Below are positions 17,742-64,000 of a stretch of 64,000 bases of DNA, piece after piece. Position numbers and translations under genes: made by a program. Origin of the DNA: Papaver somniferum. Its lineage: Eukaryota > Streptophyta > Magnoliopsida > Ranunculales > Papaveraceae. Position 1 is the stretch's first letter, and each line of letters starts with the position of its first letter. The DNA is taken from NCBI RefSeq assembly GCF_003573695.1, contig NC_039364.1:233795656-233859655 (forward strand), given 5' to 3'. The notes beneath the pieces are model-generated. The model did no database searches. It was not told the DNA's origin and saw only the letters and a program-made list of their open reading frames with translations.

Positions 17742-20700
17742 TGTTAGAGCATTGCTCGGTCGACCTCACATGCGTTGATATCTCAAGCATGTTTGTCAAT
17801 GTTAGTGATCAAAACTATAAGTCTTGATTTCTAGTCTGTTATAGCTAAGTCTCGGACTAGTATAGAAAGTGTAGTTGAGCTCAAGGACTTCATGGAGATT
17901 CATCATACAAGAAGAAGAACTACTCAAGGAACCGGTGGAACTTCTCGACAAAAAAGTATGTGAAGACTTGAACTTATCTGTCACTCAAAAGTCTATCTAC
18001 TCTATCTCTTACTCTTTGAGACAAGAAGTCGTATGCTATATATATATATAGACTTGGATTATACACATTTGGTATTTCGAGCCGAGTATACCTCGCCTAT
18101 CTATATATCGAATATGTGTTGGGAAGCTTTTCGCTTCGATCAAGTTTATCTTTACCTAGTGACGAAAGTCATGATATGTTTCAATCATCTTGAAAATTTC
18201 TCTGACGAAAAATGGTTTGTGAATAACAACTATATAACGTCCTCTGAGAATGTTTCAATGATTGAAATGAGAGTTTAGATTACATAACCAATGATGGACA
18301 TAAACATTATTGTGGAAACACATTTATGTATAAGTCCTATTCTCTGAACCAAAGTTTGCGAACTTTGTTGATCAAGAGAAATCGGAGAATGGCGCGAGCC
18401 AAGTCCGCGAACTGCCGAACTTCTCATCCCGAGAAATTCTGCTGGAGTTGACGAACTAGTTGCGTCCGCGAACCGGCGGAAGGTCTTTACCGAGATTTTC
18501 TGCTGGAGTTTATAAACTCTACCGGTTGCTTAAGTCCGCGAACCTAGTCTGCGAACTTGAGAAAGGTTATATATCTGAAGATGATTTCTAAACTTAAACT
18601 TATAAAGACTAAGGAATGCAGTTTGCAAACCGTGGCTATAAAGTTCATGAACCGATTCGAGTGAATCAAATCATGTTTGCTTCAATTGTGTCTTGTGTAG
18701 TACATGAGATTTCCTTGCAATTGAACAACTCTCTTAACTACTTCATATGAGTCATTTGGACTAGTTATGGTGAAGAAGAACATGGTTGATATGAAATGCT
18801 CATATGGCTAACCTTTTGGTTGACTATTATTGAACCAACAATGCACACGTTTGGGTACGTTTAACAAACCTAGAAGCGTGCAGTTCAAGTGTGTATAACA
18901 AGCTAAGTTTTCAATCTAATGGTTGAGAAATATGAGCTTGAATCTGAATCAGGTTTTCATCTAACGGTGGATATTGTTTGCTTTGCAACCAAGGAAAAAT
19001 CCTGATTTGAAAGACTATATATAGGAGACATCTAGTATTGTGCAAAACTAATCCCCACACCTTATGTCTGATACTAGTTTGCATACACTAGTGGAAAATA
19101 GAAATAAAACCACTGTCAGGACAAGAAGTTATATCGCTAAAAACGACTGTGTCCATTAGCAGTAATCTAGAAGTGGTTTTTTTCAAAACGACTGTGCCTG
19201 GCAAAGGTTGAATTCTTTAAAAAAATCACTTTCTTCATCAGCTGATTGATAAGTACTGACAAACACAGTAGTTTTTATTGATGATATTTATAAAAAAAAA
19301 AGAATAATTGATATTGATTCAGCTGAATCCAAAGGAGAATCAACTGAATCAAAAACTAAAAGCTGAATCACAATTAAATTAATATTACTTCAAAACAGAA
19401 TTCAACAAAATTAAATTGATAATGGATTTAAAACTTAATTTATATTAAAAAATGTATTCATTTTAGAGTTTCAACTAACAAAATACTGCAAGTCTGAAAA
19501 ACTGCTAACACTAAGTTGGAGAACCTTAACCTATATTCATATTGCAAGCTTCACATAATGAATTGGCTCAACTAAGGAGCAAGGTTCTACCATCAGTTCA
19601 TCATTGAGAATCTTCCTCTGACAGCCAAGATGCTCAAAAGCTATTTACCATGACTCTTTTTATCTTGACTCGCAACAAGGTTTGGCTACTGTATCAACTC
19701 TATCGTTCTTTCTGTTGTAGCTCCAGAACTCAGTTCAGTTGAAGCAAATTTTCAGAACCTGCACATTTTCAGCTTAATATTTATGAACAACATACACGAT
19801 TTTAGAGTACAAATGCTTCAAGGTTAATGTTCATAGATACATGTTTATGAGATAATCCACGATATATGCCTATGAGCTATATCAGTTCATAGAGAAATTT
19901 CAAAACTCATAGGGGATGTAAAACAGTTACATGCTAATGCTTATCTGAAGTTATAATGGAGCTTACCAAACACAGGTATCAAATTTTATGTTAATCTACC
20001 TGAGTTCTTGTCGAGCTCAAATGCATAGGTTTGTATATAGATATTATGAAAAGGGTTGAACAAAGAGAAACAAAAACTTATCTTTGAATTAGTGGTTGTT
20101 CAAAGACGTTCACGACCCTGCAACATCCTTTTTTCCCATTGCAACTATTCTCCATTCAGAGTTCAGATATTGTTCAACTCCAACACTGAAACAACAAGGA
20201 AGTTTAAGGATATAGGATATGATATATTCTAGGTAGATAAAATAACACAACAATTCAAATGTTATGCCGGCTAGGAACCAACAGTCCATTTGTAGGTAGA
20301 CTATGCTTAAATTTAGACAATGCAAATATGGTAAACCATCTGCCAACAGATACATTTTTTTTATAACATTTAAACTAAATATGAATTCTGAAAACCAAAT
20401 GGGGTGATGAAAGATCTTAATTGGGTGGCTTAGTTTCAATAAGAAGTTGTCAACCTGCATTCTTGTACAAGAAAGAATCCCTAGAGTCTACCTTTTTAAG
20501 TTACTGAACACGATAAAGAAAACATGCGGAGAGTTGAATATTTATAAAACTGATAAACTACATGTTCTTTAATATCAGCGTAATTATTTTTACTTCAAGC
20601 CTCTCTTGAACCTACACATGAAGTGACCAATTAAATTGCAAGCCCTTTCATACCAAATTAACATGCTCTGCCAAACCTGCAAAAAGAAAGATACACTACT

Positions 20701-23700
20701 AAGTTGAACTGAACTCATACAGTACTACAATGTCGTAGAAACAAAGACCCATGTTAAGTACAAACATAAAGAAATGCATAAGAAATAAGAGCTCGGAAAC
20801 AAACCATGTGTAAGTAAGTATCAACATGAGGCACTCTTTATTTAGTAATTCCTCGTGGGTCTTGATGCTTAAACTACCATTGAACACAACAAATTTAGTA
20901 TCAGGCAGGGTAAGTGTTGAACCGCTCAAACTCGTAGCAGATCTGAGGTTTAGATATAATTAAGAATCAACAGGAAATGATCAAAATCTTCATTGTTATA
21001 TGAAGGTTTAGTATGAACGCAAAATTATAACAACAACTTATCCAGCCACATGCTCAATTTGCTGCAGTGTCAAGAGGGGCCAGAGACTATAGTTTTTCCC
21101 ATCCCAGATTTTGCTTGACAGATAACATCCATAACCAAAATAGCTTGAGAAATGCATTCATGTTGAACTGATTAATAACCAATAGAAGCAAAGCAACCTC
21201 GGTAAGTAAGATATGATCTTCGAATATGAACTAAAATTATCTGCAAGTCAAACAATACACCTCAAAATATAATTCCACTAATGAATATGAACTAAAATTA
21301 CAAAGAAAGTAAATTACAACCCCTGCAGCACCTATTCATCTTCAAGTACCAAGAGGACTAAACCAAAACTAGCCTACTGAACTTTGTTAAATCAAAAACA
21401 CAAAAGAGTACAAGGAGTAGTAAATTAATCTCAATTCATAAGAAGATTCAAAAAAGGAAAAAAAATGTAAAAACTAAATCGATTAAATAAATAAAATCAC
21501 CAGAATAAAATGATTCTTAGGCCAAATTATAAGGTCCAACACGACAAAAGTTCCAAAGGATTAAGCTCTTCCATACAAAGAAATACAATACTAAAGAATT
21601 CCAAGTTTTTAACTAACAAAACCATCTATGGGATAACACAAAACAAGTCTCGATATTACTACTAAACTGAGGCAAACTATCAATGATTCTTATGAACCAG
21701 GCGAAATCTTTCATATTATGAATTTTTCACCAACACAACATAAAAATTCATAGATTCCTATACTAGCTGAGCAACCTTCAAGTCTCTAACTACCCACACA
21801 CATGAATGAAACAGCACACAACTGTAAATCTGTACACACAATACCTGTAAGAGATAAAACTACTGAACATAAAGAAAATAAAAATTGGATATATGCTCAA
21901 TCCCAGATCGACCACTGCTCTAAGAAGCTCCGCCTTTAATAAAAATTCTCCAAGTCCAGAACCATATATTTTAACATACCCCCTGCACCATTACAAAACA
22001 TTCACATTAGCCTCAAACTTTAAAGTTTCATACATACTATCAGAAATCGACAAAAAAAAAACTAATTTCTAGGGCTTGAGCAAAAAACCAAAAACGAAAT
22101 CATATCAATTTCACTCGCAAGATGTAATTAACTTTCAGAAATCCAAAATCACTAACAATTTCATAGAAAAAAATTTCTAAATTTTAGCAAACCCAATCTT
22201 AATTCCAGTTGAAATCAAATAAATTGAAATCAAATAAATCCAGGGTGTAAAAATTAAATATAACCAAGATAATGAGTTCGAAATTCAATGTTCGGAGTTC
22301 AAATCTAAATAGAGATTAATAGTTAATCTTACCGTTTTCATTATTTCACAAGATCTATATACTTGTGGTCATCATATTTTCTCGATCAGAACTCTAAGGA
22401 TTGTAAGAAAAATTGAAAGAAGAAAGGAACCCTAACCGTAAGATAGTAAAATCATCCCTTACGATTTCTGTCTTCATCAACATCCTCTAATTATTTTTCC
22501 GATACATCTTCTGTGCTATTTTTGTTGTTTAATTAGACAGATTATGAGAGAGATTGAGAGAGAGGTGGGGATGGAGAGTGATTGATTTGGTTTACTATAG
22601 GTTTTAGTTGATGGCTAGGGTTTGTCTATTTTCTTTTCAGATCGAATGATGTCACGAAATTTCTGGTGAAACTGAAAGATGAAGAAATGAGCTGGATTTG
22701 AGATTTGGGGATTTTAGGGTTTTCCTGAGAGATTGATGTGGTGAGTGAATGGATAAGAAGAAGAAGATGCGGTAGCTGTGAACTCTGAGTGAATGAAGAG
22801 AAAGGGGGAAATTTCCTTTTACAATTTCTTTTCTCATAGAAAATTCAGCCTCTCACAGTGGTTTCTGAAGTCCATAAGAAAGCCTACATTTTTATGGAAA
22901 TACGCGCTTATAATACGACTGTGAGAGAAACAAGTTTTCTATTTTCTTGTAAAAGCCACTGGGTCTCACAGATCATATAATTACCCTGGCCCGTGGAAGT
23001 CGTTTCTTCAAAGTCCATAAAGTTGTTAAAATCTCATTCTCCACTAGTGATACTAGAGTCGATTCTCCTTTAACCCTGTGGTTTTCTTTTCTCAAACCGT
23101 TTTAACGACTTAAAGACTTTATTGGGATTGTGAAGCCAGACCGATACTACTTTTATCGTAGTTTTGTGATCTGATCTTGCATCTTCAATCGTACGAGTAC
23201 AATCAGATTGATTGGCTTGAGATTTGATATCTCCGATAGGAAAGATATAAAGAATAATCACAAACACTTCGTCTCATCGTTTGTGATTCCACAACATCTT
23301 GTTTCGCTACCATACGATTAAGATTGTTGTGAGTTGATTGATTAATCTAGGATGTTCTTCGGGAATATAAGAATGGGTTATCAATTGGTTCTTGTTCACC
23401 TTGATTATTATCAAAAGACGGAACAAAACCTTTAAGGTTTATCTGTGGTAGACAGATTGATCCTTTGATAGACTTGTCTGTAGGAGACATATTTGTTTAT
23501 TGTTAAATCCTGCGATTTAGGGTCGTAGCAACTATTAGTTGTGGGTGAGATCAGCTAAGAGAATCAAGTGCGCAATATCCTGATGGTATCAGAGGCGTTG
23601 AAGCATAACTTTACCTTGGTCAGTGGGAGATTGGTTTGGGTTCAACTAAAATCCAGTACGAGGTTATCTTGGAGTAGGCTAGAGTATGTAGTGGCTTAAT

Positions 23701-24121
23701 ACAGTGTATGTTCAATATGGACTAGGTCCCGGGGTTTTTCTGCATTTGCAGTTTCCTCGTTAACAAAATTACTGGTGTATGTGTTATTTCTTTTCCGCAT
23801 TATATTTGTTATATAATTGAAATAATACAGGTTGTGCGTTAGATCAATCAATTGAAGAGTCCGACCTAACGGTTATTGATTGATATTGATTGATCCTTGG
23901 ATATTGGTCTTTGGTACCATACAAGTTATCTCTCTTTAATTGAGACTCGCAGTTTGCTTGAGTAAGATTAAATCGAGAGATTGAGATATTAAATCCTTGA
24001 TATACTTTTATCTAGATTGAGTCTGACTGTCTAGTTGATTCTCTAGAAAGTGTTTCAGAGTTTTTCCATACAGATTGCTAAGCGGAATATTGGGTGGTGT
24101 TGTTAGACCCTTGCCTTTTCA
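17742..24121 (+). repeat. 5' LTR of Ty1/copia element 1, split by a CACTA element
   Basis: The LTR begins TGTTAGAGCATTGCTCGG and ends GCCTTTTCA, directly before a primer-binding site. Its two halves (17742-19085 and 23053-24121) add up to about 2.4 kb. They are colinear with the reversed LTR at 27269-29699 and the plus-strand LTR at 34914-37064/58970-59169. It contains several near-palindromic GTCCGCGAAC words around 18350-18560 and a probable transcription start region near the TATATATATATAG at 18038. The open frames at 17528-18278 and 22652-23267 are not genes. Confidence 0.92.
19086..23049. mobile_element. Non-autonomous CACTA (CMC/EnSpm) element, 3,964 bp
   Basis: The ends are CACTAGTGGAAAAT and ATTCTCCACTAGTG, with the 3-bp TSD ATA at 19083-19085 and 23050-23052. 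The reversed LTR at 28340 has the unfilled site (gcATActagag on the forward strand of the LTR). Subterminal regions repeat CGACTGTG, CCACTG and CTCACAG words. No transposase is recognisable. A stretch at about 22330-22620 on the minus strand resembles a plant 5' leader exon ending at a GTAAGATT donor. An open frame at 20699-20929 (SGSTLTLPDTKFVVFNGSLS) might be cargo; neither is identified. Confidence 0.92.
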
Positions 24122-24140
24122 ATTGGTATAAGAGCAGGCA
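24122..24140 (+). other. Primer-binding site of copia element 1
   Basis: ATTGGTATAAGAGCAGGCA lies directly after the LTR end. It matches the TGGTATCAGAGC-type site, complementary to initiator-Met tRNA, that plant Ty1/copia elements use, with one change (C to A). Confidence 0.85.
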
Positions 24141-27100
24141 AACACGTTTAAGACCTTACAAGTCTGTGTTTGTAGCGATCTGACTATATGGATTATTAAG
24201 TCTCAATTAACGCTTCACCAAGTTTAAAAACCAGTCATAGAAAAAAGTCTGATAAACTGGTTACTCTTCAAGAAGGGTTGGATGAACAAATTCGGATCAA
24301 CGCTGGTCTTGTTGCATAAATTGCAATTTTTAAGGATTTGATATCTAGTAATAGTCCCTCGGTGAATCTGAGAAACCACAGTTGTTTCTCTTTAAAGAAT
24401 AGTCGTAAATCAGATAGTAATCAATGGTCGTATGTTGGGAAAACTAATGTGACTAGGAACCACTCAGACAAACTTCAAAGTTCTGGCACGTGTTTGAGTT
24501 TTGATTCTTCCAATCACCTCCAACAAGTTTGTATGTCCTTTCAAAAGAGTCTGAACGTTGTAAGTAATCTTTCTAAGAAAGCTAAACAACTTTTTGATAC
24601 TCTGAAAGCTCATATAAAACTGTCAGGAAACTCTAAACAGAGAAGTATTAATAGTATGGGCGCATTTTTTTTAATATCTACCTCTCCTTTTCAATGGTTT
24701 CTTGATAGTGGATGTAGTAGACATATGAGAGGCGATCTCACATGGTTTGTCTCGTCTATCGACTATAAAGGAGGTCTCGTAACATTCAGAGATGGGAGTT
24801 GCTGCTACATAGCAAGAAGGGAAAGATCAAACTACCCGGTGTTCCAGAAATCCATGATGTAGTATACGTAAAAGGTATGACTGCTAATCTTCTTTCTATT
24901 AGTCAAATTTGTGACAAAGGCCATCGAGTAGTCTTCAACACAAATGGATGTGACATTGTAGACAAAACCCGGAAAGTAATTTTTCAAGGAACTCGTGGTA
25001 AGAACAACTGTTATCTACTTGATACTCAGTTCAGTAACCGTTGCAATTTGACTAAGGTGGAATCAACACATCTTTGGCATGAGCGTTTTGGTCACATCAA
25101 TTACCGACTTCTAACTAAGATATTTAACAAAAAACTTGTTAGAGGAATTCCCAAAATCAATGCATAGATTGAAGGTGTATGTGGTGCCTGTCAAAAGGGT
25201 AAACAAACAAAAGTTCACCACAAATCATCTCGAGATATTCTCACTAAATCTCCACTTGATTTAATTCATATGGATATCTTCGAACCAATTCAACAACCCA
25301 CTGTTGCTGGTAAGAAGTATGCTTTATTGATGGTAGATGGTTACACCATATTCACTTGGGTCGCATTCCTATCTCATAAGAATGAAACCCTTGGTGAATT
25401 CAAGAGTATTACTAAAAGGATCCATAATGAACAAGGTCGCGAACTAAATAAATTTAGAAGCGATCGTGGAACAGAATTCAAAGACATCAAAGTATTTGAA
25501 CTCTGTGACGAACTGGGGATCATTCAACAATACTCACCACCTATTACTCCTCAAGATAATGGAGTTTTCGAAAGAAAGAATAGGAATATTCAGGAAATGG
25601 CCAGGGTAATGCTCCATAACAAAAACTTATCATTAAGATTTTGGGAAGAAGTTGTCTTTACAGCATGTTACTTGATCAACCGTGTGTATTTACGGTCAAA
25701 AACCCTTAACACTCCTTATGAGTTGTGGTATGGAAGGAAACCCAACTTACATTATCTCAGGGTGTTTGGAAGTAAGTGCTATATTCTGAAGGATAGAGAA
25801 CAGAAAGGGAAATTCTACACCAAAAGTGATGAAGGTATCTTTCTTGACTATGCTTCTGATAGTCGTGGTTTTCGAGTGTTTAATCTCAGAACTAAAGTCA
25901 TGATGAAATCTGTTAATATTATCATCGATGACATTAGTAACTTTCGTCATGATAATCCTCCTGTTGAATTGCCTCCAACCGAGACGATTGAGAAAGTCAA
26001 ATAAATTCCAGAATCAGTTGAAGTTATCCCAACTGTTACTGATCCTGACATTTCTAGTGACGAGGAGAAGATCACTGATCAAGCCATTCCTGACGAACAA
26101 GAACGTGTCCATCCACGACATCTCTGGGCTCAAAGAAATCATGATCCCAACATTATTATTGGATGAAGAGATTCTACAACCAAAACAAGAGGACAACTTC
26201 AAAATATGTGCAATTTTGGTTGTTATCTTTCGCAAGTAGAACCAAGAAATATTGATGAAGCTCCGAACGATCCCCTTTGGGTGAATGCAACGCATGAAGA
26301 GTTAAATCAATTTCAAAGACAAGATGTGTGGGAACTTGTACCTTGTCCCTCCAATATCAATATTGTTGGTACCAAATGGATATTCAAGAATAAGTCTGAT
26401 GAATTTGGTACGATTGTCAGAAACAAAGCTAGACTGTCATTCAAGGATATTCAAAGATTGAAGGAATTGACTTTGACGAGACCTTTGCTCTTGTGGCACG
26501 CCTTGAGTCCATTCGTCTTTTGTTAGCTCATGCTTGTTTTCTTAAGGTTAAGTTGTTTCAAATGGATATAAAATCCGCGTTCCTCAATGAAATCTTAAAG
26601 GAGGAAGTCTATGTTGCTCAACCAAAGGGGTTTGAAAACCCTGATTTCCCAGATCATGTGCTAAAACTCAAAAAGGCATTGTATGGGTTGAAACAAGCAC
26701 CTAGATCCTGGTTTGAAAAACTTATGACTTCTCTCATTAGAAAAGGTTTTTCAAGAGGCGGGTCTGATAAAACCTTGTTTACCAAGTGGAGTGGGAAAGA
26801 TGTTGTAATTTCTCAAGTCTATGTACATGATATTATCTATGGATCAACTTCTGAAAAATTTTCAAAGGACTTCCATGTCTACCTTGCTAAATAATTTGAA
26901 ATGAGCAATGTTGGTGAATTAAAATTATTCTTCGGATTACAAATTCAACAACATAAGGATGGAATCTACTTATCCCAAGAGAAGTATGCTCGAGATCTTG
27001 TGACAAGGTTCGTCCTGGATAAGTCCTTTCCAAAATTGACACCTATGCCCACTACTGGTAAACTACATAGAGATGAAAAAGGAGAAAAATTGGATCAAAA

Positions 27101-27268
27101 GATGTATCGACCTATTATTGGTAGCCTTTTGTATCTTACAACTACGAGACCCGACATTTCTTTCAGTGTTGGTTGTTGTGCTAGGTTTCAGGAGAACCCA
27201 AAGGAATCTCATATTGCATCTGCAAAAAGGATCATTCGATATATTAATCACACTGTCGGGTATGGTAT
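24141..27268 (+). pseudogene. Ty1/copia pol remnant (protease, integrase, RT), gag missing
   Basis: Only about 550 bp lie between the primer site and the protease, so gag is essentially absent. The protease motif WFLDSGCSRHM occurs near 24700. After a frameshift near 24800 come the zinc-binding integrase block (LWHERFGHINY ... VCGACQKGK, with a stop at 25165 between them), the integrase core (SDRGTEF, then PPITPQDNGVFERKNR) and stops at 26002 and 26164. The RT starts with IVGTKWIF, has frameshifts near 26440-26500, then FQMDIKSAFLN and [16 protein letters not shown]. The catalytic YVDD is YVHD at about 26820-26831, and a stop follows at 26892. Coding ends in TVGYGIE at the junction with element 2, so RNase H is cut off. 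The sequence style suggests the SIRE/Maximus lineage, which is an inference. Confidence 0.88.
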
Positions 27269-29699
27269 TGAAAAGGCGGGGGTCTAACAACACCACCCAA
27301 TATTTCTCTTAGCAATCTGTATGGACAAACTCGAATACACTTTTAAGAGAATCAACAAGACTCAATCAATTAAAAGTACATCAACAAGTTTATATCTCTC
27401 TTTTGATTTGATTTACTCAAGCAAGAATGCGAGTTCTAATCAAATACAAGGAATAACTTGGATGGTACCAAAGACCAATATCCAAGGATCAATCAATATC
27501 AATCAACAACCAAAGGTCGGATTTCCAATTGAATGATTCAAACGCAACCTGTATTATTTCAATTATAAATATAAAACAATATAATGCGGAAATTGAAATA
27601 ACACAGACACCAGAAATTTTGTTAACGAGGAAATCGAAAAATGCAGGAAAAACCTCGGGACCTAGTCCATATTGAACACACACTGTATTAAGCCGCTACA
27701 GACACTAGCCTACTCTAAGATAACTTTGTACTGGACTATAGTTGAACCCCAATCAGTCTCCCACCGATCCAAGTTACAGTTATCTCCTACACCTCTGATC
27801 CCAGCAGGATACTGCGCACTTGATTCCCTTAGCTGATCACACCCACAACTAAGATTTGCTATGATCCAAAATCGCAGGCTTTAACAATAAACAAATCTGT
27901 CTCACACAGACAAGTCTATCAAAAGATAAATCTGTCTCCCACGGATAAACCCTAAAGGTTTTATTTTGTCTTTTGAAAATAATCAAGGTCAACAGAAACC
28001 AATTTATAATCCGGTCTTATATTCCTGAAGAACAGCCTAAATTAATCAATCACCTCACAATAATCTTAATCGTATGGTAGGGAAAAAGATGTTGCGGAAT
28101 CACAAACGATGAGACGAAGTGTTTGTGATTACTTTTTATATCATGCCTATCGGAGAAATCTCACGATCTCAAGCCAATCAATCTGATTGTACTCGTACGA
28201 TTGAAGATGCAAGATCATATCACACAACTACGATAAAAGTAGTATCGGTATGGCTTCACAATCCCAATTAATTGTTTAAGTCGTTTAACCCGGTTTGAGA
28301 AAAGAAAACCAGAGGGTTAGAGGAGAACCGACTCTAGTATGCAAACTAGTATCACACATAAGGTGTAGGGATTAGTTTTGCACAATACTAGATGTCTCAT
28401 ATATATAGTCTTCAAATAAGGCTTTGTAATCAATTTTAGCTTAGTAACGAAGCATTCAATATCCACCGTTAGATGAAAACCTGATTTATATTCAAGCTAA
28501 TATTTTTCAACCGTTAGATCGAAAACTTAGATTGTCATACACTGCACGCTTCTAGGTCTGTTAACCGTATCCAAACGTGTGCATTGTTGGTTTAAACATA
28601 GTCAACCAAAAGGTTAGCCATATTAGAATTTCATATCAACCATGTTCTTCTTCACCATAACTGGTTCAAATGACTCAGATGAACTAGTTAAGAGAGTTGT
28701 TCAATTGCAAGAAAATCTCATGTACTACACAAGACACAATTGAAGCACAAATGATTTGATTCACTCGAATCGGTTCATAAACTTTATAGCCACGGTTTGC
28801 AAACTGTATTCCTTAGTCTTTATAAGTTTAAGTTTAGAAATTATCTTCAGATATATAACCTTCTCAAGTTCGCGGACTTAAGCAATCGGGTAGAGTTCAC
28901 AAACTCCAGCAGAAATTCTCGGGATGAGAACTATGCCGGTTCGCGGATTGGGTTCGCGAACTTGGCTCATGTAAGTAGTTTGTCAACTCCAGCAGAAATT
29001 CTCGGATTTGAGAACTTCGACAGTTCGCGGACTGAGTTCGCGGACTTGGCACTTGCCATCCTATTTTTCTTGATCAACAAAGTTCGCAAACTTTGGTACA
29101 AGAAATAGGACTTATACATAAATGTGTTTCCACAACAATGTTTATGTCCACCATTGGTTATGTAATCTAAACTCTCATTTCAATCATTGAAACATTCTCA
29201 GAGAACGTTATATAGTTGTTATTCACAAACCATTTTTCCTTAGAGCAATTTTCAAAGTGATTCAAGCATATCATGACTTTCGTCACTTGGTAAAGATAAA
29301 CTTGATCGAAGCGAAAAGCTTACCAACACTTATTTCGAGATATAGATAGGCGAGGTATACTCGGCTCGAAATACCAAATGTGTATAATCCAGTCTATATA
29401 TATAGCATACAACTTCTTGTCTCAAAGAGTATGAGATAGAGTAGATAGACTTTTGAGTGATAGATAAGTTCAAGTCTTCACATACCTTTTTTTCGAGAAG
29501 CTACACAGGTTCCTTGAGTAGTTCTTCTTCTTGTATGATGAATCGCCATGAAGTCGTTGAGATCAACTATACTTTGTATCCTAGTCCGAGACTTAGCTAT
29601 AATGGACTAGAAATCAAAACTTATAGTTTTGATCACTAACATTGACAAACATGCTTGAGATAGCAACGCATGCGAGGTCGACTGAGCTATGCTCTAACA
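27269..29699 (-). repeat. 3' LTR of minus-strand copia element 2
   Basis: On the minus strand it runs from TGTTAGAGCATAGCTCAG (29699) to CCCCCGCCTTTTCA (27269), 2,431 bp. It is colinear with the element 1 LTR but unbroken. It cuts the RT/RNase H coding sequence of element 1 right after GGTAT (27264-27268), the probable 5-bp TSD; the partner would lie beyond 64000. It contains the empty site for the CACTA element at 19086 and repeated GTTCGCGAAC/GTTCGCGGAC words at 28870-29095. Open frames at 28797-29108 and 29457-29639 are spurious. Confidence 0.93.
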
Positions 29700-29714
29700 G
29701 TCTCCCCCTTTGTC
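29700..29714 (-). other. Polypurine tract of copia element 2
   Basis: The minus strand reads ACAAAGGGGGAGAC directly before the LTR start TGTTAG. A purine run in this position primes plus-strand synthesis, so it fixes the orientation of element 2 as minus. Confidence 0.85.
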
Positions 29715-48179: not shown

Positions 48180-48256
48180 TGTTGATGGTTCAGAACTGAA
48201 TTGTTTATTTTTTTGTTTGATAAGAGGAAGGTGGCTTGGATCAAAATCTGATACCA

Positions 48257-48486: not shown

Positions 48487-48491
48487 ATGGG

Positions 48492-50040: not shown

Positions 50041-50054
50041 ATAGATAAACTGAG

Positions 50055-50450: not shown

Positions 50451-51058
50451 ACCGTTTTATTTCAGAACTCAAATCGCGATTCATGCCCAAGTTCTTGTCC
50501 AAATTCATGACTAATATGATATGATAGATTGGTAATGAGCACAATAGTTTTTAACACACAAGAAATATTTTTGTGTGGCCATGCAATGAACTAAAAAATA
50601 AAAAGTTAAGTTGTGTAGTAATATATTACTACTTTTTCATATTAATGAAATGTGTAAATTTCTTAACATATACGTGTCTAGTAAACCATGCATTATAGAT
50701 ACAGAAACAAACCAAAGTGGATGAACAGGTTCTTTTCGGCCATGGGTGATTAAATGTGTCTAATACCACCCTAAACAATAGACACATCAACGACTTGTCC
50801 ATGTAGTCATATACTAATCTACGGTTACAAGCCATGGTTTAGATTTAAACCCATGACCAAATGGTGCTCTTTGGTTACAATTTATGAATTTGGACTTAAA
50901 ATCCATGACCAAATGATGATCTTTCCTAAAGGGTAACCTAAAACGTGGCTACAACAACACTGCAGTTTGTAACTATTACATGTAGCCACGCAAATAACCC
51001 AAAACGTGGCTAGGCTATAAAACCAAAAACGTGGCCTATGTAACTATTTGTACTAGTG
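50451..51058. repeat. Right subterminal region of the 11-kb CACTA element
   Basis: After a unique AT-rich part, the last 130 bp contain AAACGTGGCT, AGCCACGC, AAACGTGGCT and AACGTGGCCT in both orientations before the terminal CACTAGTAC. The left end has matching GGCCAC/ACGTGGCT words between 40012 and 40700. Such arrays are normal transposase-binding regions in CACTA elements. Confidence 0.75.
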
Positions 51059-54000: not shown

Positions 54001-56292
54001 AGTTCAGAGGGTAGCTTACTAATATTATAAATGTTCAGCTCAATAGTCATATTACCAAAAGACAATTTCATACTACCATTTCGACAGTTAATGATCGCAT
54101 TGGATGTAGCTAAAAACGGGTGACCTAAAATTACTGGTATCTGGTTCTCTGGGTCAGAGACAGGTTGGGTATCTAGGATAAAAAAATACACTGGATAAAT
54201 AAACTTGTCAACCTCTATGAGAACATCCTCGATCACACCACGAGAAATTTTAACGGACCTATCAGCTAACTGGTGTCATCTGGGTAGGTTTCATCTCACC
54301 AAGTCCTAGCTTAAGGTACACATGATATGGTAGTAAGTTCACACTAGCTCCTAAGTCAAGCAACGCTTTCTCAACACGGTATTTACCTATTGTGCAAGAA
54401 ATGGTAGGGGACCCTGGGTCTTTATACTTAGAAGTAGTAGTATTTTGAATAATAGAACTCATGTGACTAGCTAGAGAGGCTTTCTTCTGGACATTAAGCT
54501 TTCGCTTTCGCGTACACATATCCTTGAGAAACTTGGCATAAGAGGGAATCTGCTTAATTTCATCTAGTAGTGGAAGGTTGATAGTTACCTGCTTAAAAAC
54601 CTCCAATATATCATTAAAATTGGACTCCCTCTTAGTTGGAACTAGCAGCTGTAGGAATGGGGCTCTAGGGACAAATTCGGGCTCAATATGACTCTCATTG
54701 GTATCTTTAGAGACTCTATCAGTCTCCTCAGTTTCTGGTTCAGAAGGATGAACTACAACATGTTCACTATCAGGTATGGAAACCTTGTTGTCTATCACTC
54801 TTCCACTCCTAAGGGTTTTAATAGCATTCACATGATCAGATGGTCTTTCACCTAATTCATTAATTTCTCTAGGGTTGGGTTGAGTCTGACTAGGAAACTT
54901 ACCTCTTTCTCTTAAAGACTGATTTATCTGACTAACCTGGTTTTTCAACTCGGAAATAGCCTGAGAGTTAGCCTGACCTATTCTCTTATTTTCTTCTAAA
55001 CCTTGAGCAACAGATTGCTGAAACTGCACAGTGTTACGAGTTAACAAAGCAAGAGACTCTTCTAAACTCATAATCTTCTTATCCGAGAGGTTCTGAAATT
55101 GTTCCGGAGCTGAATGATTCTTAGTATAGCCAAAACCTGGGGGAACCTGAGCATTACTAGAATGACCTTGATTCTGGCCCTTGGACGAAGAAAGGTTTGA
55201 ATGGTTTCTCCAGCCAGGGTTATAGGTTTCTGAATATGGGTCAAACTTCTGTCGGTTATCAAACCTAGTGTTGTTATAAAGAGCATTGGCTTGCTCTTCA
55301 ACAGCAAGGCCTTCCTAAAAAGGCTCATTTCTTCCACTACTACCACTAGAATGACCTAATTCTAAGGCTTCTAACCTTTTGGCTATAGTTGCTATTTTGG
55401 CATCTGACTCATAAGTTCCTTCTACCCTATTAACATTTCCTCTACTTAGAAATATTTTTTTCTGGGGTTCCCTACTATTTTCCCACTGTTGGGTCTTATC
55501 GGAGATTTCATTCAAAAATGTCATCGCTTCATCAACAGTTTTATTCTCAAATCCACCTGTGCATAAGGACTCAACCATGGTTGTTGTTGAATAATCTAAA
55601 CCCTCGGAGAGGATCTGAACTAACCTAACCTTCTCCAAACCATGATGAGGACATTGAGATATCAAGTCATTGAACATTTCTAAGTACCTATATAAAGATT
55701 TTCCCTCTTGTTGGGCAAAAGTACAGATTTGTGTCCTAATAGACGATGTTTTATGCCTTGGGAAAAACTTATGTATAAAGGCAAAAGTAAGTTGGTCATA
55801 GGTTTCAATTGACTCAGAGGCCAAACTATACAACCAAGATTTGGCTTTATTTTTTAAGGAAAAGGGAAATAACCTAAGTTTCAACGCATCATCACTTAGT
55901 TTTTTAATTTTCAGAGTGCTACAAACTTCCTCAAATTCCCTAACATGAAAATAGGGGTTCTCATTCTCTTTTCCTAAAAACATTGGGAGCATCTGTAAAG
56001 TCCCAGGTTTCAGTTCATAATTTGCCTCGGTTTCAGCTAACTTGATACAAGACGGACGAGAGGTCCTAGTTGGGTTTAACAAAGCTTTCAAAGTTGCCAT
56101 TTCTGGCACTACCAAAGGACTAGGAGTACTTTCTTCACCAATTGTCAAATTTTCAAAGCTGAAATCTCCAAAGACAGGGCTCTCAAAAGAAGAGTCTTCG
56201 AGTTCCCCGCCTTCACTAGAAGAACTAGGCTAGTCACTAATCAAACGACCTAGAGTGTTTCTTTTGCAAGCCCGTTTTCTAACCTCGGGCAT
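51059..56292 (-). pseudogene. Ty3/gypsy (Athila-like) gag-pol, multiply broken
   Basis: Gag probably starts at 56292 (MPEVRKRACKRNTLG), meets a stop at 56230-56232, and continues (ENPYFHVREFEEVCSTLK, then FPRHKTSSIRTQI) to a stop at 55315. The protease has LLDLGASVNLLPY near 54310. A frameshift near 54275, a stop at 53913, a frameshift near 53680 and stops at 53462 and 53165 precede the RT. The 537-residue open part at 51479-53092 has [17 protein letters not shown] (its residues 31-34), RNase H Asp181, Glu220 and Asp247 ([11 protein letters not shown]), the integrase zinc domain (HACGDH ... CERC) and core Asp458 and Asp517 (SDGGSHF). A frameshift near 51490 and a stop near 51440 then break the integrase. 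It goes on to [20 protein letters not shown] and SPGQKVL, where the CACTA element cuts it. Confidence 0.92.
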
Positions 56293-57387
56293 ACACTAGA
56301 AAAAAAAATTAAAATGAAAAGTCCTAAAAAGGAAGGGAAGTTCCATGCAAACACAAACAAGTCTGACTCTACCACAACAAACCTATTGATTTTCTAGCAA
56401 ACAAAAAGCATGATGGCTCCACTTAGATTGTTTCTAGACCAGCTTCTAATCCTTCGAAAGGGAATTCGTTACAATTTAAGCTAACCCCTCTGGAATCAAT
56501 CCGAGTTAAAGTAAGTTGAATAGAGGCGAGGGAAGCTCGGTGGAGCTTTGATACCCAAGGCCTCACCGGTATTACAAGGCGGCGCAGTCACGCATTCAAC
56601 TTACAGAAACCGTCAAGAAATTCGAAGTATGCTTAAAAGAGTAACCAATATTTTTCGAATGACTTTCCTGTTAAGCTCGTTACCCTATCGGTCTCGTTCT
56701 AGTCAAAATTTTAGGCTTAGGTTTGCGTTTGGTGTCGTTTTCCTAAGGCGGGCAAGAAGAGAACGGTGATAAAATCCGACCCCTTATCTTGTATGGCCAG
56801 TTCTTTCCCTTTACTAGGAAATTAAAGAAGCCGTTTTCAAGTCCTCAACATATATGCATACGAAGGAAGACAATAACTCACTGACAGGAGATTCGCGAGT
56901 GTTTCGACAAATTTACCTCCCGTACCAGACGGGGGATGAACCTTTGTATTCGACTCGGGCCACGACTCCTATGTCATGTACGAACCCGAGGGGCCGAGAC
57001 GATATCGTAATCGTCGTCCTTCTCTGCAAACAGTTTATATTTAAACTACCCTTCCGTAGGGTTTAAAAATAATGTCCCAAAATTTAAAGTCCAAATAGGG
57101 AAACGCAAAAAAAAAATTACAAAAATAGAGAATATCCTAATACAATTTCTAAAAACTAGAAAAAAATCAAAAAGATAAAAACAAAATCTAATCAAAAAAT
57201 TTCTTTTTTTTATCGCTCTTTTCGCTTTTTCTTTAACTCCAAATCTTTATGTATTCACCAAAGCTTTGCCAAATTTTTCTTTCGCTCCGAATTCCAAAAT
57301 CTGTAGTAAAAAGACAAAAACCCAAAAGTGCAAAGAAGAACAAATAAAACCTAAAAAAAAAATCTAAAAACTCTAGCCTAAAGACAA
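56293..57387 (-). other. 5' leader of the Athila-like element
   Basis: Untranslated leader between the primer site and gag. The half near the primer site (57090-57390) is A/T-run rich. The middle has open frames at 56548-56769 and 56854-57066 on the opposite strand, which have no recognisable content. Confidence 0.6.
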
Positions 57388-57405
57388 GTCCGGTCGGCGG
57401 CGCCA
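57388..57405 (-). other. Primer-binding site of the Athila-like element
   Basis: The minus strand reads TGGCGCCGCCGACCGGAC six bases after the 5' LTR end. TTTGGCGCCG directly after the LTR is the usual primer-site start in the Tat/Athila branch of Ty3/gypsy. Confidence 0.8.
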
Positions 57406-57411
57406 AAAATT

Positions 57412-58964
57412 TGATGTGTTTTCAAAGTTTTTGTAGTAAAAAGGTTCGTTGAGACTCGTGAAGGAAGATTTTTTTAGACTTAATTTTTATAAATAAAAAA
57501 AAAATAACAAACTCGAATAAAAAGTGTTGTGAGAATTATGGAGAGACTGGGGCTAGGATTCCGCTATTTACCAATTCCAAAGTGCTACTAATTATAATCA
57601 TGCAATTTCAAACGTCCAAATTGATTCTCAACTATTACAAAAGTAGATTTTTAGAAACAACAAATGTTAATCCAAAGCATGAGATATCAAAACCATAGGC
57701 TAAGCATGTTCCATCAAAATAAAATACAATTGTTTAACAAAAACCATAAAATTTATTTTCAATCTAGGCAAATAATCATAAATAAAAATTGCACAAATTA
57801 AATAATTAAGAATTACCAATTTTTCATTGGAAAGATGGCATCCTCCGTCGCCCCAAGGATTGGGTTTAGCTCATCATTGTGGAAATGCGCTCAAAAGTTG
57901 ATTTCATTGCTCAAAGTGTTTACAAATGATGAATTGGAGAAAAACTATTAAAAATCGGGTGTTTGCAACATTTTTAATTGTTGCAAAACACTGTTACATA
58001 AAACGATAAAAGCCAACTATTGTTGTTAAGCTTCTACGACCCCCGCCTCTGTGTCGTTATCACTGTTGATAAACGACTATTTTCGTGAGTCTGTTCTTCG
58101 TGTTCTTCAGTTCTGCAGCAGCAGAAATGGTGTTCTTTGCAACTCGATTTTTCGGCTCTGTGATGCTCTGTAACTCTCCCAAACTCTCTATCCTCCTCTA
58201 CGCTACCACAGAGTTATATTTATAATCAACATGGCCAAGAATAACTCCTCATTACTCCACAAAATCTCCCATTACTCGACAGTGATGAAAAATATTCTCG
58301 GAATATTTTCTTCCTTGATTTTTTTTCTCACGCGTCTGCAGCTTCCTAACTCCATTCAACACGCTGAATATTGAAAATAAAATGATCCATACACACTCCA
58401 GGCTCGTGCCAACCATAGAATAACTCGGGAAAGAGAATATCAACCCTCGTGAAAGTAAGAATACCAAAGTTTTCCCTCACTCGTGTTTTGCTTCCACACG
58501 ATTCTTCGGGCAAATCTAATCGATTCCAAGGACCTTACCAGCCCTGTTTAGTCCCTAACAACAAACCCATTTGATTTCAGCCATTGAATCTCCCTAAAAC
58601 GCCTTCAAATCACGAACCCTAATTTTGGTGTTTTGATAATAGCTTTTCCCTCCAAATTCCAAATTCAAATGGAGAAGATGACCTCCCCCTAATCATGTAC
58701 GGGTGTCCCTTTAGCACTTGCCTTATGGGGTGTGAATAGTAAGGAAGGTGCCCCTTAGTAATTGAGTGCCCCTTATCCAACAGTGCGAGTCAGAATAACA
58801 TGTGTCCTCCGGGTGCTTTTGACAGCTTTTCGAGCCGATTTTTCCAATAATGTTTATTTCCCAAAAATGCCTACAAACACATAAAATATCATAATAAGTA
58901 CAAAAATCGAGTACCAACAATACATGAAATTAAGGACAACGTAGACACAAACATATGTCTATCA
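57412..58964 (-). repeat. 5' LTR of the Athila-like element
   Basis: 1,553 bp, adjoining the primer-binding site at 57388-57405. Substitutions and small indels relative to the 3' LTR show the insertion is clearly older than that of the copia element at 43797-48486. Frames at 58252-58467 and 58723-58920 mirror those in the other LTR and are not genes. Confidence 0.95.
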
Positions 58965-59174
58965 GGTACCGTCCAAGTTTATCTCTCTTTAATTGAGACT
59001 CGCAGTTTGCTTGAGTAAATCGAGAGATTTAGATATTAACTCCTTGAGATACTTTTATCTAGATTGAGTCTGACTGTCTAGTTGATTCTCTAGCAAAGTA
59101 TTTCGGAGTTAGTCCATACAGATTGCTAATCGAATTATTGGGTGGTGTTTTTAGACCCCCGCTTTTTCAACATC

Positions 59175-61025
59175 CTTTCCGTCCTAAGACATGATGCTTA
59201 GAGAAAAATTATAAACAATTGGTTTTTGTGAGTGGAATTCTCAATCTCATCAAGAAGTCTTAAGATATAAAGGATATCAGGAGGAAAAAGTAATGTAGGG
59301 TTCGCAACCTTTAATCAGGTTCGTGTACGTCCAACTCTAAACCCTATAAAGAGTAGAATAGTCGATAATAACCCTCTACTTTATTTGATAGACAGAAAAG
59401 ACAAAACAAAGAACTTTTCCTAAAGCCTGTGAGGAACTAAATCTCATCTCTTTTGATCAGGCACATGACACAAGATTTACCAAACAACACAATCAATTTG
59501 TGTTGTGGTGAACAATTTGTCCACCATTTTCCTCAAGAGAGGAATCCTCAGACTTTTGTCTATAAAAGCGACTTGACCATACTTTCTTCTCTAGTGGTCT
59601 TATTTTGTCTTAGGAAACCAACTTCTTAGACGAATATAAAATCCTACATACCTCAGCAGTCTTCTGAGCTAGTTTTAGCTTCCTTGCCAATCGATTTTCT
59701 CTTTGTTGAAGTTTATTGGCGTGCCTCACTTGATGTTTGTACTTGTAACATCTTTATAGTTCATGACCCTTCTGAGAACAAAATGAGCACGTCAAAATTG
59801 AATAATATTCAGGCATCTGTTGTGTAACCGCAACTAGACACATAGTGGATCCTGAAACATAACAATCAGAGTTTCCAAAGGATGGGTCAATTGATTCTTC
59901 CAGCTTGATTGGATTCTCTTCTTTACCGAAACCATCAAGATCGATATATGTATTGCTACAGTTATCAAAATAAATATTTTCACATAGAAGACCAACACTT
60001 GATTTCTTGTCTTCATCAGAATCATAGATCTCAGACATCTCATCAAGTGTTACAACAAGACCTTTGTTCCCAATGTATTTTCTACGATTTGGGCACTCAT
60101 TTGAAAAATGACAAAAACCTTTACACTTAAAGCACTGAGGCATATCCTCATCATCAGCCTCGTCAGCAACCCTGATTTTAGGAGGAATGCGATTGTGAGG
60201 TTAATTTGATGACCTAGGTTTGTGTCTTGAAAACCGTTTACTTCTCTTCAACAGAAGGTCCCTAAACTGTCTTGTGATCAAGGAGACTGATTTTTCAAGA
60301 TCTTCATCTGAAAAATCATCCTCAGACTGATCATCCTCGGAGACATACACTTTTTTACTTTTATCAAGTAATTTAGTGTCCTTTAGAGCTTTGAATGCAA
60401 CATCCTTAGAGTTGGATGAATGCTCTTGATCAAAGGTATTTAGATTTCCAACCAATGTATTTCTTATCAAGGTTATTTACCTCAACTATGGCATGCTTCT
60501 TAAACTCGTATCTAGATGGCAGCGATCTGAGAATTTTCATCACAACGTCCTTTTCAGGAATAGTCTTACCCAATGCAAAAGATGCATTAACAACTTCATA
60601 CACTTTTTGATTAAACTCATCAAATGTATCTTCATATGCCATACGAAGGTTCTCCAATCGGAATTAAGATTTTGAATTCTAGCTTCCTTTTCACTGGAGT
60701 TACCTTCAAATACGGTTTCTAAGACATCCCAACCGTCTTTAGACCTAGTGCAATTTGATACATGGTGTTGAAGATTTGGGGGAATGGCATGTATGATTGT
60801 ATTCAAACAGTCGGAATTTTGCTTTGCAGCAAGTATCTCAGCAGGTTTGTATTCACCAATATTCTTGGGAACGTTTACATCTCCATCTGCCACAACGGGA
60901 GCATCATAGCCATTAACAACATATACCCATGTTTGAAGAAAAGCTCGCATAGCAATTTTCCACCATAAGTAGTTAGAGCCATCGAAGACTGGTGGTATGT
61001 TAATAGAGATAGCACCTCTCTCCAT
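59175..61025 (-). pseudogene. Gag of copia element 2, with two frameshifts and stops
   Basis: Starting at 61025, MERGAISINIPPVFDGSNYL and WWKIAMRAFLQTWV match the DUF4219-type start of plant copia gag. The frame is lost near 60660, resumes in 60657-60430 (AYEDTFDEFNQKVYEVVNAS, then RSLPSRYEFKKHAIVEV), shifts again near 60460, and continues with an acidic stretch to two zinc knuckles. The first is intact (CFKCKGFCHFSNEC). The second (CSFCSQKGH...) has a stop between its His and last Cys. Below 59750 the frame decays and never reaches a protease, integrase or RT. It then runs, past the solo LTR, into the 3' region at 34913-33599. Confidence 0.88.
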
Positions 61026-61072
61026 AGAGTCAGATCACTACAAACACATACTTTTGAGGTCTTGAACATGTT

Positions 61073-61091
61073 TGCCTGCTCTGATAGCAAT
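61073..61091 (-). other. Primer-binding site of copia element 2
   Basis: The minus strand reads ATTGCTATCAGAGCAGGCA directly after the LTR end TTTTTCA. It is the same site type as in element 1, with a different single change. Confidence 0.85.
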
Positions 61092-61310
61092 TGAAAAAGA
61101 GGGGGTTTAACAACACCACCCAATATTTCGCTTAGAAATCTGTATGGACAAACTCGAATACACTTTTAAGAGAATCAACAAGACTCAATCAATTAAAAGT
61201 ACATGAACGAGTTTATATCTCTCTCTTGATTTGATTTACTCAAGCAAGACTGCGAGTTCTAATCAAATACAAGGAATACCTTGTATGGTACCAAAGACCA
61301 ATATCCAAGG
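61092..61310 (-). repeat. Start of the 5' LTR of copia element 2, cut by another LTR
   Basis: The plus strand begins TGAAAAAGAGGGGGTTTAAC and is colinear with 27269-27492 of the 3' LTR until CCAATATCCAAGG, where a second LTR of the same family begins at 61311. The rest of this LTR, and the end of element 2, lie beyond the window. Confidence 0.88.
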
Positions 61311-64000
61311 TGAAAAAGCGGGGGTCTAACAACACCACTCAATATTTCGCTTAGCAATCTGTATGGACAAACTCCAATATACTTTTTATGAAAATCAACT
61401 AGACAGTCAAAATCAATCAATAAAAAGATATATCAAAGAGTTTATATCTCAATCTCTCGATTAAATCTTACTCAAGCAAACTGCGAGTCTCGATTAAAGA
61501 GAGATAGACTTGGATGGTACCAAAGACCAATATCCAAGGATAAATCAATATCAATCAACAACTGTTAGGTCAGACTATCCAATTGATTGATCTAACGCAC
61601 AACCTGTATTATTTCTATTATATAAACAAATATAATGCGGAAAAGAAATAACACAGACACCATAAGTTTTGTTAACGAGGAAACCGCAAATGCAGAAAAA
61701 CTCCGGGACCTAGTCCAGATTCAATACACACTGTATTAAGCCGCTACGAACACTAGCCTACTCCAAGATAACTTCGGACTGGACTGTAGTTGAACCCCAA
61801 TCAGTCTCCCACCGATCCAAGGTACAGATGCACCCCTACGCCTATGATCCCAACAGGATATTACGCACTTGATTCCCTTAGCTGATCTCACCCACAACTA
61901 AGAGTTGCTACGACCCAAAATCGCAGGCTTTAATAATAAACAAATATCTCTCCCACAGAAAAGTCTATCAAAGGATAAATCTTGATAGACGCATTTATGT
62001 GTCTAATTTTTCCTCAATGTTCCGTATTGTTAGTACTCGTTTTCGTACTTATTATGGTGTTTTGTGTGCCTGTAGGTGTTTTTAGAGAAACACACTTGCG
62101 TGGAAAAAGTTAATCAAAAAGTGCTATTTGGCCCCCCGGAGAAAAGTACTAAAGGAACCCTCCTTTTGGATAAGGGGCACCCCAGGTCACCCCCAAGGCA
62201 TCTACTATTCGCACCCCCTGCTCTGGATAGGGGCAACCCTTCTTCATCGTTTAAATTTCAAAAATGGCGGGAAAATGAAGAACATCTACTGTGTGATTTT
62301 CGATCAAAGTTTGAAGGAGTTTTGGGTAGACTAAAGGGCTGAAACTTCATGGGTAGTTGTGATATGTCCTAACAAAGATATTATGGGTGTTTCTTTCGAT
62401 CGAATTTGGCTGGATAACTTGGTTTTAATCCAAACAGGGAGTTGGAGGAAAAACATGAGCTTGTACGGGTTGTGAGGAATTTAAACGTGTACTGCACGTG
62501 TTTGGAAGAGTTAATCGATATTATGGAGCGTGAAGAAGGTATAGAGGGAAAGAAATACAGCTGCATGCGCGTGGAAGATCAAGAAATGGAAACTTTGGTC
62601 GTGGAGAATAATATTGATAAATGAAGATTATTTGGGAGATATGGCGTGATTAAATGAGTATTAGGAGTATAAATAGATTTTTCAAGGTATAAGAGAGGGT
62701 GGTCGAGAGTTGGGAGTCGAGAGGAGGTCCAGAGAAGCAGAAATCAAGACGAACAACAAGCTCCCTGTTGCTGAAGAGCACGAAGAAGGGACCTGCCAGA
62801 GCAGTCGTTCTTCAACAGTAACAGCGACAGCGGACCGTGGTTCGTAGTTTTCCAACGATTACAGCACTTAAGACATATAGTTCTTTGTAATGGGTTATGC
62901 AACGATTATAAACGTTGCAAACACATGATTTTCACCATTTTCTCTCCATTTCATCATTGTGAACCATTTTTGAGCCATAATAAAATACTTTGAGCGTGTT
63001 TTCATCATGATGATCTAAACCCAACACTGGGATGAAGGAGGAGGCTGAATTTCGTGCATGGGTAAATTTATTTTGTTCTTTTTTATGACTTTTGCATTAA
63101 TTTAAAATTGAAATATGATTTGAATTAATTAGTTGTTATTTAATTTGATGATGTATGCTTAGCTTAGTTGTTTTGATACATCATGCTTAGGACTTACAAT
63201 CAATGTTTTAAGAATCTATCTTGGCAAAATCAGAGGCTATGTTAATTTTATTGAGTTTTAGTTGTCAAAGAATATATGAATGAACCTTGTGTGATGAATT
63301 CATCCAAATCCTTAGTCCCAGTACCTCTCACCCATTGTTAATATTTTTGTATATATAATTTTATTAAATCTAAAAATTCAATTTCCTTCACAAGTCTCAA
63401 ACGAATCCTATTTACTACAACCCCATCAAAAATCTTTAATCAGTCTCCCACAAAAAAACCCTAAAATTTTGTTCCGTTTTTTGATATGAAATCAAGGTGA
63501 ACATAAACAAATTTATAATCCGGTCTTATATTCCCGAAGAATAGTCTAGATTAATCAATCATCTCACAACAATCTTAATCGTATGGTAGGGAAACAAGAT
63601 GTTGTGGAATTACAAACGATGAGACGAAAATATTTGTGATTACTTTTATATCTTTCCTATCGGAGAACTCCCACGATATCAAACCAATTAATATGATTGT
63701 ACTCGTACGATAGAAGATGCAAGACTAGATCACACAACTACGATAAACGTAGTATCGGTCTGGCTTCACAATCCCAATGAAGTCTTTAAGTCGTTTAACC
63801 CGGTTTGAGGAAAAAAAAACAGAAGGTTGAAGGAGAATAGACTCTAGATTACAAACTAGTATCACACGGACGTGTGGGGATTAGTTTGTAGAGTTTCTAG
63901 ATGTCCCCTTATACAGTTTTTCAAATCAGGGTTTCACCTTGCTCACAAAGAAAACGCTATCCACCATTAGATGAAAACCTGATTTAGATTCAAGCTAATA
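61311..64000 (-). repeat. Further copia-family LTR (partial), inserted in the element 2 LTR
   Basis: The plus strand begins TGAAAAAGCGGGGGTCTAAC. It matches the reversed LTR of elements 1 and 2 through 61982, is interrupted by an Athila-type LTR, and resumes from about 63436 to the window end. CAAGG (61306-61310) is the probable TSD. Whether it is a solo LTR or the edge of a complete element cannot be seen. Confidence 0.85.
61983..63430 (+). repeat. Athila-type solo LTR, diverged family member
   Basis: It begins TGATAGACGCATTTATGTGT and ends near ACTACAACCCCATCA, the same terminal layout, in the opposite orientation, as the LTRs of the Athila-like element at 37065. Shared blocks include the GTACTCG...GTACTTATT start region, GGATAAGGGGCACC and AAACCCAAC. 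AATCT at 61978-61982 and 63431-63435 is the probable TSD, allowing for two extra A residues at the right border. No internal sequence is present. Frames at 62076-62624 are spurious. Confidence 0.8.

What the first reader, a model, noticed from the sequence alone, without database searches (positions are those of the whole stretch)
17742..64000. A six-level transposon nest resolved by target-site duplications
The order of insertion can be read directly. Copia element 1 is cut by copia element 2 (at 27269). Element 2 is cut by a solo LTR (TSD ACATC), which is cut by an Athila-like element (TSD GGTAC). That is cut by a CACTA element (TSD AGA), which is cut by a young copia element (TSD ATGGG). 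Each outer sequence becomes continuous again when the inner one is removed, including a rejoined integrase frame across 39990-51058. This gives a relative clock for five families from one locus.
Basis: seen in the sequence. Interest (0 to 1): 0.75.

Follow-up and report, generated by a model that had tools for sequence, protein, structure and literature searches.

The report
Nested plant transposons, six deep
A stretch of plant DNA holds what look like six transposable elements inserted one inside the next like Russian dolls, which shows the order in which they jumped; such nests are common in plant genomes, so this one is real and tidy but ordinary.

Summary
The nest is real. Four of five nesting steps carry exact target-site duplications (TSDs): solo LTR ACATC, Athila-like GGTAC, CACTA AGA, young copia ATGGG. 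Two hosts were shown to rejoin. The solo LTR aligns across the Athila site with four sister LTRs. The Athila integrase aligns across the CACTA site in 46 of 120 fetched proteins, 44 gap-free with one TSD copy, none with two. LTR-pair divergence falls inwards: element 2 0.052, Athila 0.0425, young copia 0.0044; the first two are not distinguishable.

Corrections: element 1, element 2 and the solo LTR are one Sirevirus-type copia family, so the chain has four families, not five. Only one end of the outermost step lies in the window. No pol was found in element 2, so its continuity rests on the TSD and its matched LTR pair. A side branch was missed: a CACTA in element 1's LTR, and an LTR in element 2's 5' LTR, itself cut by an Athila-type solo LTR.

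Nested plant transposons are well known; wheat 3B reaches eight layers. Low interest.

The parts
17742..27268 (+). Element 1: Sirevirus-type copia, left part (5' LTR A 17742-24121 cut by CACTA1, PBS, pol pieces, frame broken at 27268 after the RT domain); right part outside the window
   Evidence: LTR matches, 5' LTR/PBS junction CA-ATTGG-TATAAGAGC, Pfam Pol_BBD, gag_pre-integrs, rve, SH3_retrovirus, RVT_2
19086..23049 (.). CACTA1: CACTA-type DNA transposon inside the 5' LTR of element 1, TSD ATA; no transposase domain found; not in the finding
   Evidence: Terminal inverted repeat CACTAGTGGA and TSD ATA at 19083-19085/23050-23052; LTR A rejoins against LTRs B, C and E; no Pfam transposase in six frames
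27269..64000 (-). Element 2: Sirevirus-type copia in opposite orientation, inserted in element 1; 3' LTR B 27269-29699, internal 29700-34908 + 59175-61091, 5' LTR D1 61092-61310 and presumably on beyond LTR E; right end outside the window
   Evidence: PPT octamer AGGGGGAG 10 bp upstream of the 3' LTR, two further copies at 30009 and 30047, inverted repeat next to the PPT, PBS CA-ATTGC-TATCAGAGC; B-D1 K2P 0.052 over 219 columns against 0.10-0.23 for the other pairs, leaving aside C-D1 with 23 columns; gag PF14223
34914..59169 (+). Solo LTR C of the same family (2,351 bp once the Athila and one TSD copy are left out, by arithmetic on the coordinates), TSD ACATC
   Evidence: TG...CA ends and exact 5-bp TSD; LTR homology
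37065..58964 (-). Athila-like Ty3/gypsy element, LTRs 37065-38613 (3') and 57412-58964 (5'), TSD GGTAC
   Evidence: LTR pair 63/1530 substitutions, K2P 0.0425; RT-RNaseH-H2C2-rve order and gag; TSD; C rejoins against A, B, D1 and E
39990..51058 (.). CACTA2: CACTA-type DNA transposon inside the Athila integrase, TSD AGA, 28-bp TIR (25/28), tandem repeats at 49103-50034; no transposase domain found
   Evidence: Pfam on six frames of both arms gave only one match, below its family's cut-off (DUF7450, E 0.026); integrase rejoins
43797..48486 (-). Young Ty1/copia element, 230-bp LTRs differing at 1 of 230 sites, TSD ATGGG; gag has an in-frame stop and the gag-pol frame is broken; pol ORF 43999-47094 is open
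61311..64000 (-). LTR E of the same Sirevirus-type family, abutting and apparently inserted in LTR D1, runs off the window (side branch)
61983..63442 (+). Athila-type solo LTR inside LTR E, without a clear TSD (side branch)
   Evidence: local alignment to the Athila LTR over its right half, 482/613 ungapped columns identical, score 199 against at most 34 in 50 shuffles; both ends alike by eye; flanks contiguous in LTR B

Best explanation
This is an ordinary nested transposon cluster in a plant genome, made by successive independent insertions. A Sirevirus-type copia (element 1) was hit by an inverted copy of its own family (element 2). That was hit by a third family member, reduced to a solo LTR by recombination between its own LTRs. 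An Athila-like gypsy element inserted into this LTR, a CACTA DNA transposon into the Athila integrase gene, and a young short-LTR copia into the CACTA. LTR elements integrate by their integrase and leave a 5-bp duplication; CACTA elements move by transposase and leave a 3-bp duplication (established knowledge). Shown: TSDs of the four inner steps, empty-site continuity at two of them, three LTR-pair divergences. Inferred: the outermost insertion, the solo-LTR recombination, and supply from elsewhere of the transposase not found here.
For: Exact TSDs at element ends. LTR pairs with PPT and PBS on the correct sides. With the Athila left out and one TSD copy kept, 150-base flanks of C align across the site to A, B, D1 and E (D1 reaches only 22 bases to the left); with both copies, a 5-base excess appears in each of the three LTRs tried. 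With CACTA2 left out and one TSD copy kept, 46 of 120 fetched proteins align across the site, 44 gap-free; with both copies, 0 of 46 are gap-free. CACTA2 TIR 25/28. Divergence decreases inwards: 0.052, 0.0425, 0.0044. The Athila LTR pair shows no unusually long identical run: 104 bases, reached or passed in 56% of 2000 random placements.
Against: The right ends of elements 1 and 2 lie beyond 64000 and were not seen. No pol was recognised in element 2's 29700-34908 on either strand, so coding continuity across the solo LTR cannot be shown. No relative of CACTA2 was at hand to test the site of the young copia. Element 2 and Athila divergence are not separable (p 0.32). Of the 46 proteins spanning the integrase site, 2 align with gaps even with one TSD copy, and the real interrupted sequence itself gave 2 gapped alignments across the point. 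The Athila-type solo LTR in the side branch lacks the clear TSD that simple insertion predicts.
Confidence: 0.95

Rival explanations
1. The outermost step is not an insertion: element 1 and element 2 were joined by a deletion or inversion, so the true nest is five elements deep with element 2 as host, and element 1 is merely a neighbour.
For: No TSD for element 2 can be seen in the window; element 1's pol breaks off at 27268 and its rest is not in the window.
Against: The junction falls exactly at the LTR end (TGAAAA on the plus strand, i.e. ..TTTTCA of the LTR), as an insertion predicts; a random breakpoint would rarely do so. Element 2 has one LTR with a PPT and one with a PBS.
Confidence: 0.07
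2. The nested look is an assembly artefact (collapsed or mis-joined repeats) rather than a real haplotype.
For: Five LTR copies, whole or partial, of one family lie in 46 kb, a known source of misassembly (general knowledge).
Against: TSDs sit exactly at element ends on both sides of four inserts; a mis-join would not create them. The LTR copies of different elements differ by 10-23% (C-D1, with only 23 columns, left aside).
Confidence: 0.03

Closest known systems
Nested LTR-retrotransposon clusters of plants (maize adh1 region of SanMiguel et al., as told in PMC2672092; wheat 3B, PMC4290129; barley BARE elements, PMC11020628)
   Same: Serial insertion of elements into each other, order read from nesting and ages from LTR pairs (passages); same-family nesting also reported, e.g. 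BARE1 in BARE1 (passage)
   Different: A different, unidentified plant; six layers here against up to eight reported for wheat 3B
Sirevirus (SIRE/Maximus lineage of Ty1/copia)
   Same: Several AGGGGGAG PPTs near the 3' LTR, the terminal one starting 10 bp upstream; inverted repeat next to the PPT; CA-ATTGG-TATCAGAGC junction with one mismatch in each element
   Different: LTR about 2.4 kb, longer than the 0.54-1.68 kb entries shown in the cut table passage of PMC2829016; attachment site AC/TG instead of AT/TG; no pol found in element 2
Athila clade of Ty3/gypsy
   Same: Gag, and RT, RNase H, integrase in that order; 5-bp TSD
   Different: Clade not tested by a tree; no Athila ORF-1 (PF03078) in the pieces scanned; coding frames broken
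CACTA (En/Spm) DNA transposons
   Same: CACTA termini, 3-bp TSD
   Different: No transposase domain detected, so probably non-autonomous

Membership tests
Sirevirus (element 2 tested; elements 1, C, D1 and E by LTR homology) | Terminal PPT octamer AGGGGGAG starting 10 bp upstream of the 3' LTR | tested here: met
   Element 2, 29702-29709 on the minus strand; criterion from a passage of PMC2829016. Element 1's 3' end is outside the window.
Sirevirus (element 2 tested; elements 1, C, D1 and E by LTR homology) | Several identical PPTs clustered within about 0.5 kb of the 3' LTR | tested here: met
   Octamers at 29702, 30009 and 30047. The window holds one more minus-strand octamer, at 58683 in the Athila LTR, and none on the plus strand.
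Sirevirus (element 2 tested; elements 1, C, D1 and E by LTR homology) | Inverted repeat bordering the terminal PPT | tested here: met
   Score 42 against at most 22 in 500 shuffles; also listed as I3
Sirevirus (element 2 tested; elements 1, C, D1 and E by LTR homology) | 5' LTR/PBS junction CA/ATTGG/TATCAGAGC | tested here: met
   By eye: one mismatch of 16 in element 1 and one in element 2
Sirevirus (element 2 tested; elements 1, C, D1 and E by LTR homology) | Attachment site AT/TG after the terminal PPT (20 elements in the paper's set) | tested here: not met
   Element 2 has AC/TG. The passage gives it for 20 elements, so it is common rather than stated to be universal; I therefore say 'Sirevirus-type', not Sirevirus.
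Sirevirus (element 2 tested; elements 1, C, D1 and E by LTR homology) | Position in the SIRE clade of an RT or integrase tree | not tested
   No lineage reference set was used
Athila-like element | Ty3/gypsy domain order RT-RH-INT | tested here: met
   One ORF with RVT_1, RT_RNaseH, Integrase_H2C2, rve in that order
Athila-like element | No second (archaeal) RNase H, which marks the Tat clade (passage of PMC6317226) | tested here: inconclusive
   None in the pieces scanned; stretches between those pieces were not scanned
Athila-like element | Athila clade in a phylogeny | not tested
CACTA (CACTA1 and CACTA2) | TIRs beginning CACTA and 3-bp TSD | tested here: met
CACTA (CACTA1 and CACTA2) | CACTA transposase gene (only in autonomous copies) | tested here: not met
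   No transposase family in six frames at E up to 1; this denies autonomy, so these are filed as CACTA-type by their ends only
Ty1/copia (young element) | Integrase before RVT_2-type RT in one pol, LTRs, 5-bp TSD | tested here: met

The most novel reading that the evidence does not exclude
The long-LTR Sirevirus-type family may favour its own copies as insertion sites: of its four insertions in the window with at least one visible target edge, three (element 2 in element 1, solo LTR C in element 2, LTR E in LTR D1) lie in members of the same family; the fourth, element 1 itself, does not (no family match left of 17742). Element 2 would in addition be a passenger without pol, carrying about 5 kb with no recognised protein domain. 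Four events at one locus cannot exclude plain abundance of the family, and same-family nesting is known in barley.
Probability: 0.06. Interest if true: 0.4.

Novelty: new member of a known kind. Interest (0 to 1): 0.15.

Why it matters
It is a clean worked example of reading insertion order from TSDs, with three LTR-pair divergences that fall in the right order. That is not guaranteed: in a plant survey (4126 nested/original pairs) about one fourth of nested elements had the more diverged LTRs (PMC7251063, abstract and passages). It adds no new mechanism. Its use is as a corrected annotation of one nest, three of whose six layers are one family.

Tried and rejected
Element 1-type or young-copia pol in element 2's 29700-34908: none by tblastn with the window's own pieces, none by Pfam in six frames. 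Repeats there gave the PPT motif and its inverted repeat, plus local repeats up to 76 nt, and no further transposon was delimited. Gene conversion of the Athila LTR pair: no excess identical run. The window's own genome, for the missing right end: not completed, so nothing beyond 64000 was seen. Papers: of the searches on nesting (one search found none), the one usable depth figure was wheat 3B, eight layers, read in passages. on TG..CT LTR ends listed one irrelevant paper. on Sirevirus integration listed six papers; none was opened for that question, so I make no claim that self-targeting is unreported. In one search the E-nested LTR was compared with the Athila LTR in the wrong orientation (local score 32, below a shuffle maximum of 36); one search repeats it in the right one (199 against 34).

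After the filing check I recounted as distinct proteins, lowered the observation verdict to 'partly confirmed', and lowered the novel-case odds from 0.07 to 0.06 because element 1's own insertion does not fit self-targeting.
Full report
The window is 36.5% GC and reads as plant DNA: plant species dominate the named entries among the 120 listed hits of each of two protein searches. Listed identities reach 61% for the young copia RT (7446 hits in all) and 74% for the Athila-like RT region (7018 hits). The species was not identified, and the genome search did not complete.

Self-comparison shows that the frame of the nest is one long-LTR family present as five LTR copies: A (17742-24121, plus, interrupted), B (27269-29699, minus), C (34914-59169, plus, interrupted), D1 (61092-61310 and presumably on, minus) and E (61311 to the window end, minus, interrupted). 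B is the 3' LTR of an element: the octamer AGGGGGAG starts 10 bp upstream of it, with two more copies at 30009 and 30047 and an inverted repeat next to the PPT (score 42 against at most 22 in 500 shuffles). D1 is a 5' LTR: a tRNA-Met-type primer site follows it. B and D1 differ by K2P 0.052 (11 of 219 sites); the other pairs give 0.10-0.23, except C-D1 (0.093), whose 23 comparable columns say little. So B and D1 are taken as the two ends of element 2, which spans everything between them. The PPT, inverted-repeat and PBS motifs are those described for Sireviruses (PMC2829016, passages), with one mismatch in each PBS junction; the AT/TG attachment site is not met (AC/TG here).

Nesting steps. 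(1) Element 2 in element 1: element 1's copia pol frame stops at 27268, downstream of its RVT_2 domain, exactly where LTR B ends; the other side is off the window. (2) Solo LTR C in element 2: exact TSD ACATC; element 2's LTRs lie on either side, but only gag was recognised in it and no pol, so coding continuity is untestable. (3) Athila-like element in C: TSD GGTAC. With one TSD copy the flanks align across the site to A, B, D1 and E, with 45/50, 42/52, 38/49 and 45/50 identical columns around the junction (D1 covers only 22 bases of the left flank); with both copies a 5-base excess appears in each of the three LTRs tried. (4) CACTA2 in the Athila integrase: TSD AGA, TIR 25/28. Of 120 fetched proteins, 56 align to the rejoined piece and 46 across the junction, 44 of these without a gap; with both TSD copies 0 of 46 are gap-free. 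The real, interrupted sequence aligned to 64 proteins, 2 of them across the same point and both with gaps. (5) Young copia in CACTA2: TSD ATGGG; no relative of CACTA2 was at hand.

Chance: two window 5-mers agree with probability 0.0015, two 3-mers with 0.020. Four agreements at element ends are not accidental.

Clock: Athila 63/1530, K2P 0.0425 (bootstrap 0.032-0.053); young copia 1/230, 0.0044 (0-0.013); element 2 11/219, 0.052 (0.023-0.087). Both outer values exceed the young copia (Fisher p 0.0012 and 0.0022); element 2 and Athila are not distinguishable (p 0.32). At recalled rates of 1.3e-8 and 7e-9 per site per year these are about 2.0-3.7, 1.6-3.0 and 0.2-0.3 million years; the rates are from memory and the species is unknown. 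The recombination that made C solo is not ordered relative to the Athila insertion; only the insertion of C before Athila is.

What the finding does not mention: CACTA1 (19086-23049, TSD ATA) in element 1's 5' LTR, whose flanks rejoin against B (47/50), C (38/50) and E (40/50); LTR E abutting LTR D1; and an Athila-type solo LTR (61983-63442) in E. The last shows no clear TSD: its flanks are contiguous in B. Ending it five bases earlier would give an imperfect pair AATCT/AATCA but lose its CA end. The young copia, despite near-identical LTRs, has a stop in gag and a broken gag-pol frame. No transposase domain was found in either CACTA.

Literature, passages only unless said otherwise: wheat chromosome 3B has 30,199 reconstructed nested insertions with up to eight layers (PMC4290129); an automated tool orders such nests (PMC2672092); same-family nests are shown in barley (PMC11020628); about one fourth of nested elements in a plant survey had more diverged LTRs than their hosts (PMC7251063, abstract and passages), so the consistent order here is expected but not guaranteed. 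Verdict: the nest is real, the interpretation largely right once the family count is corrected and the untestable steps are marked, and the interest is low.

Noticed in passing
window 29700-34908: Element 2's 5.2-kb 3' internal region has Sirevirus-type PPTs at its end, but no pol and no Pfam domain was found on either strand; it may be a copy without pol or carry foreign sequence.
   Followed up: partly
window 61983-63442: Athila-type solo LTR inside LTR E without a clear target-site duplication: the flanks are exactly contiguous in sister LTR B. Unexplained.
   Followed up: partly
window 43797-48486: The young copia LTR reads TG...CT in element orientation instead of TG...CA, in both LTRs; TGCT ends are recalled as a known rare type, and one paper search found nothing relevant.
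   Followed up: partly
window 16679-17509: Large imperfect palindrome (inverted arms 78-97% complementary) just left of element 1, resembling a foldback or MITE-like element.
   Followed up: no
window 2899-5246: Nearby direct duplications at about 94-95% identity; a LINE-like reading frame at 5134-5502 (resemblance recalled; Pfam gave nothing).
   Followed up: no
window 24122-24320: Element 1 matches element 2 for about 70 bp past the LTR (to 24192) and then no longer; no gag domain was found in the element 1 pieces scanned, suggesting an internal deletion.
   Followed up: partly
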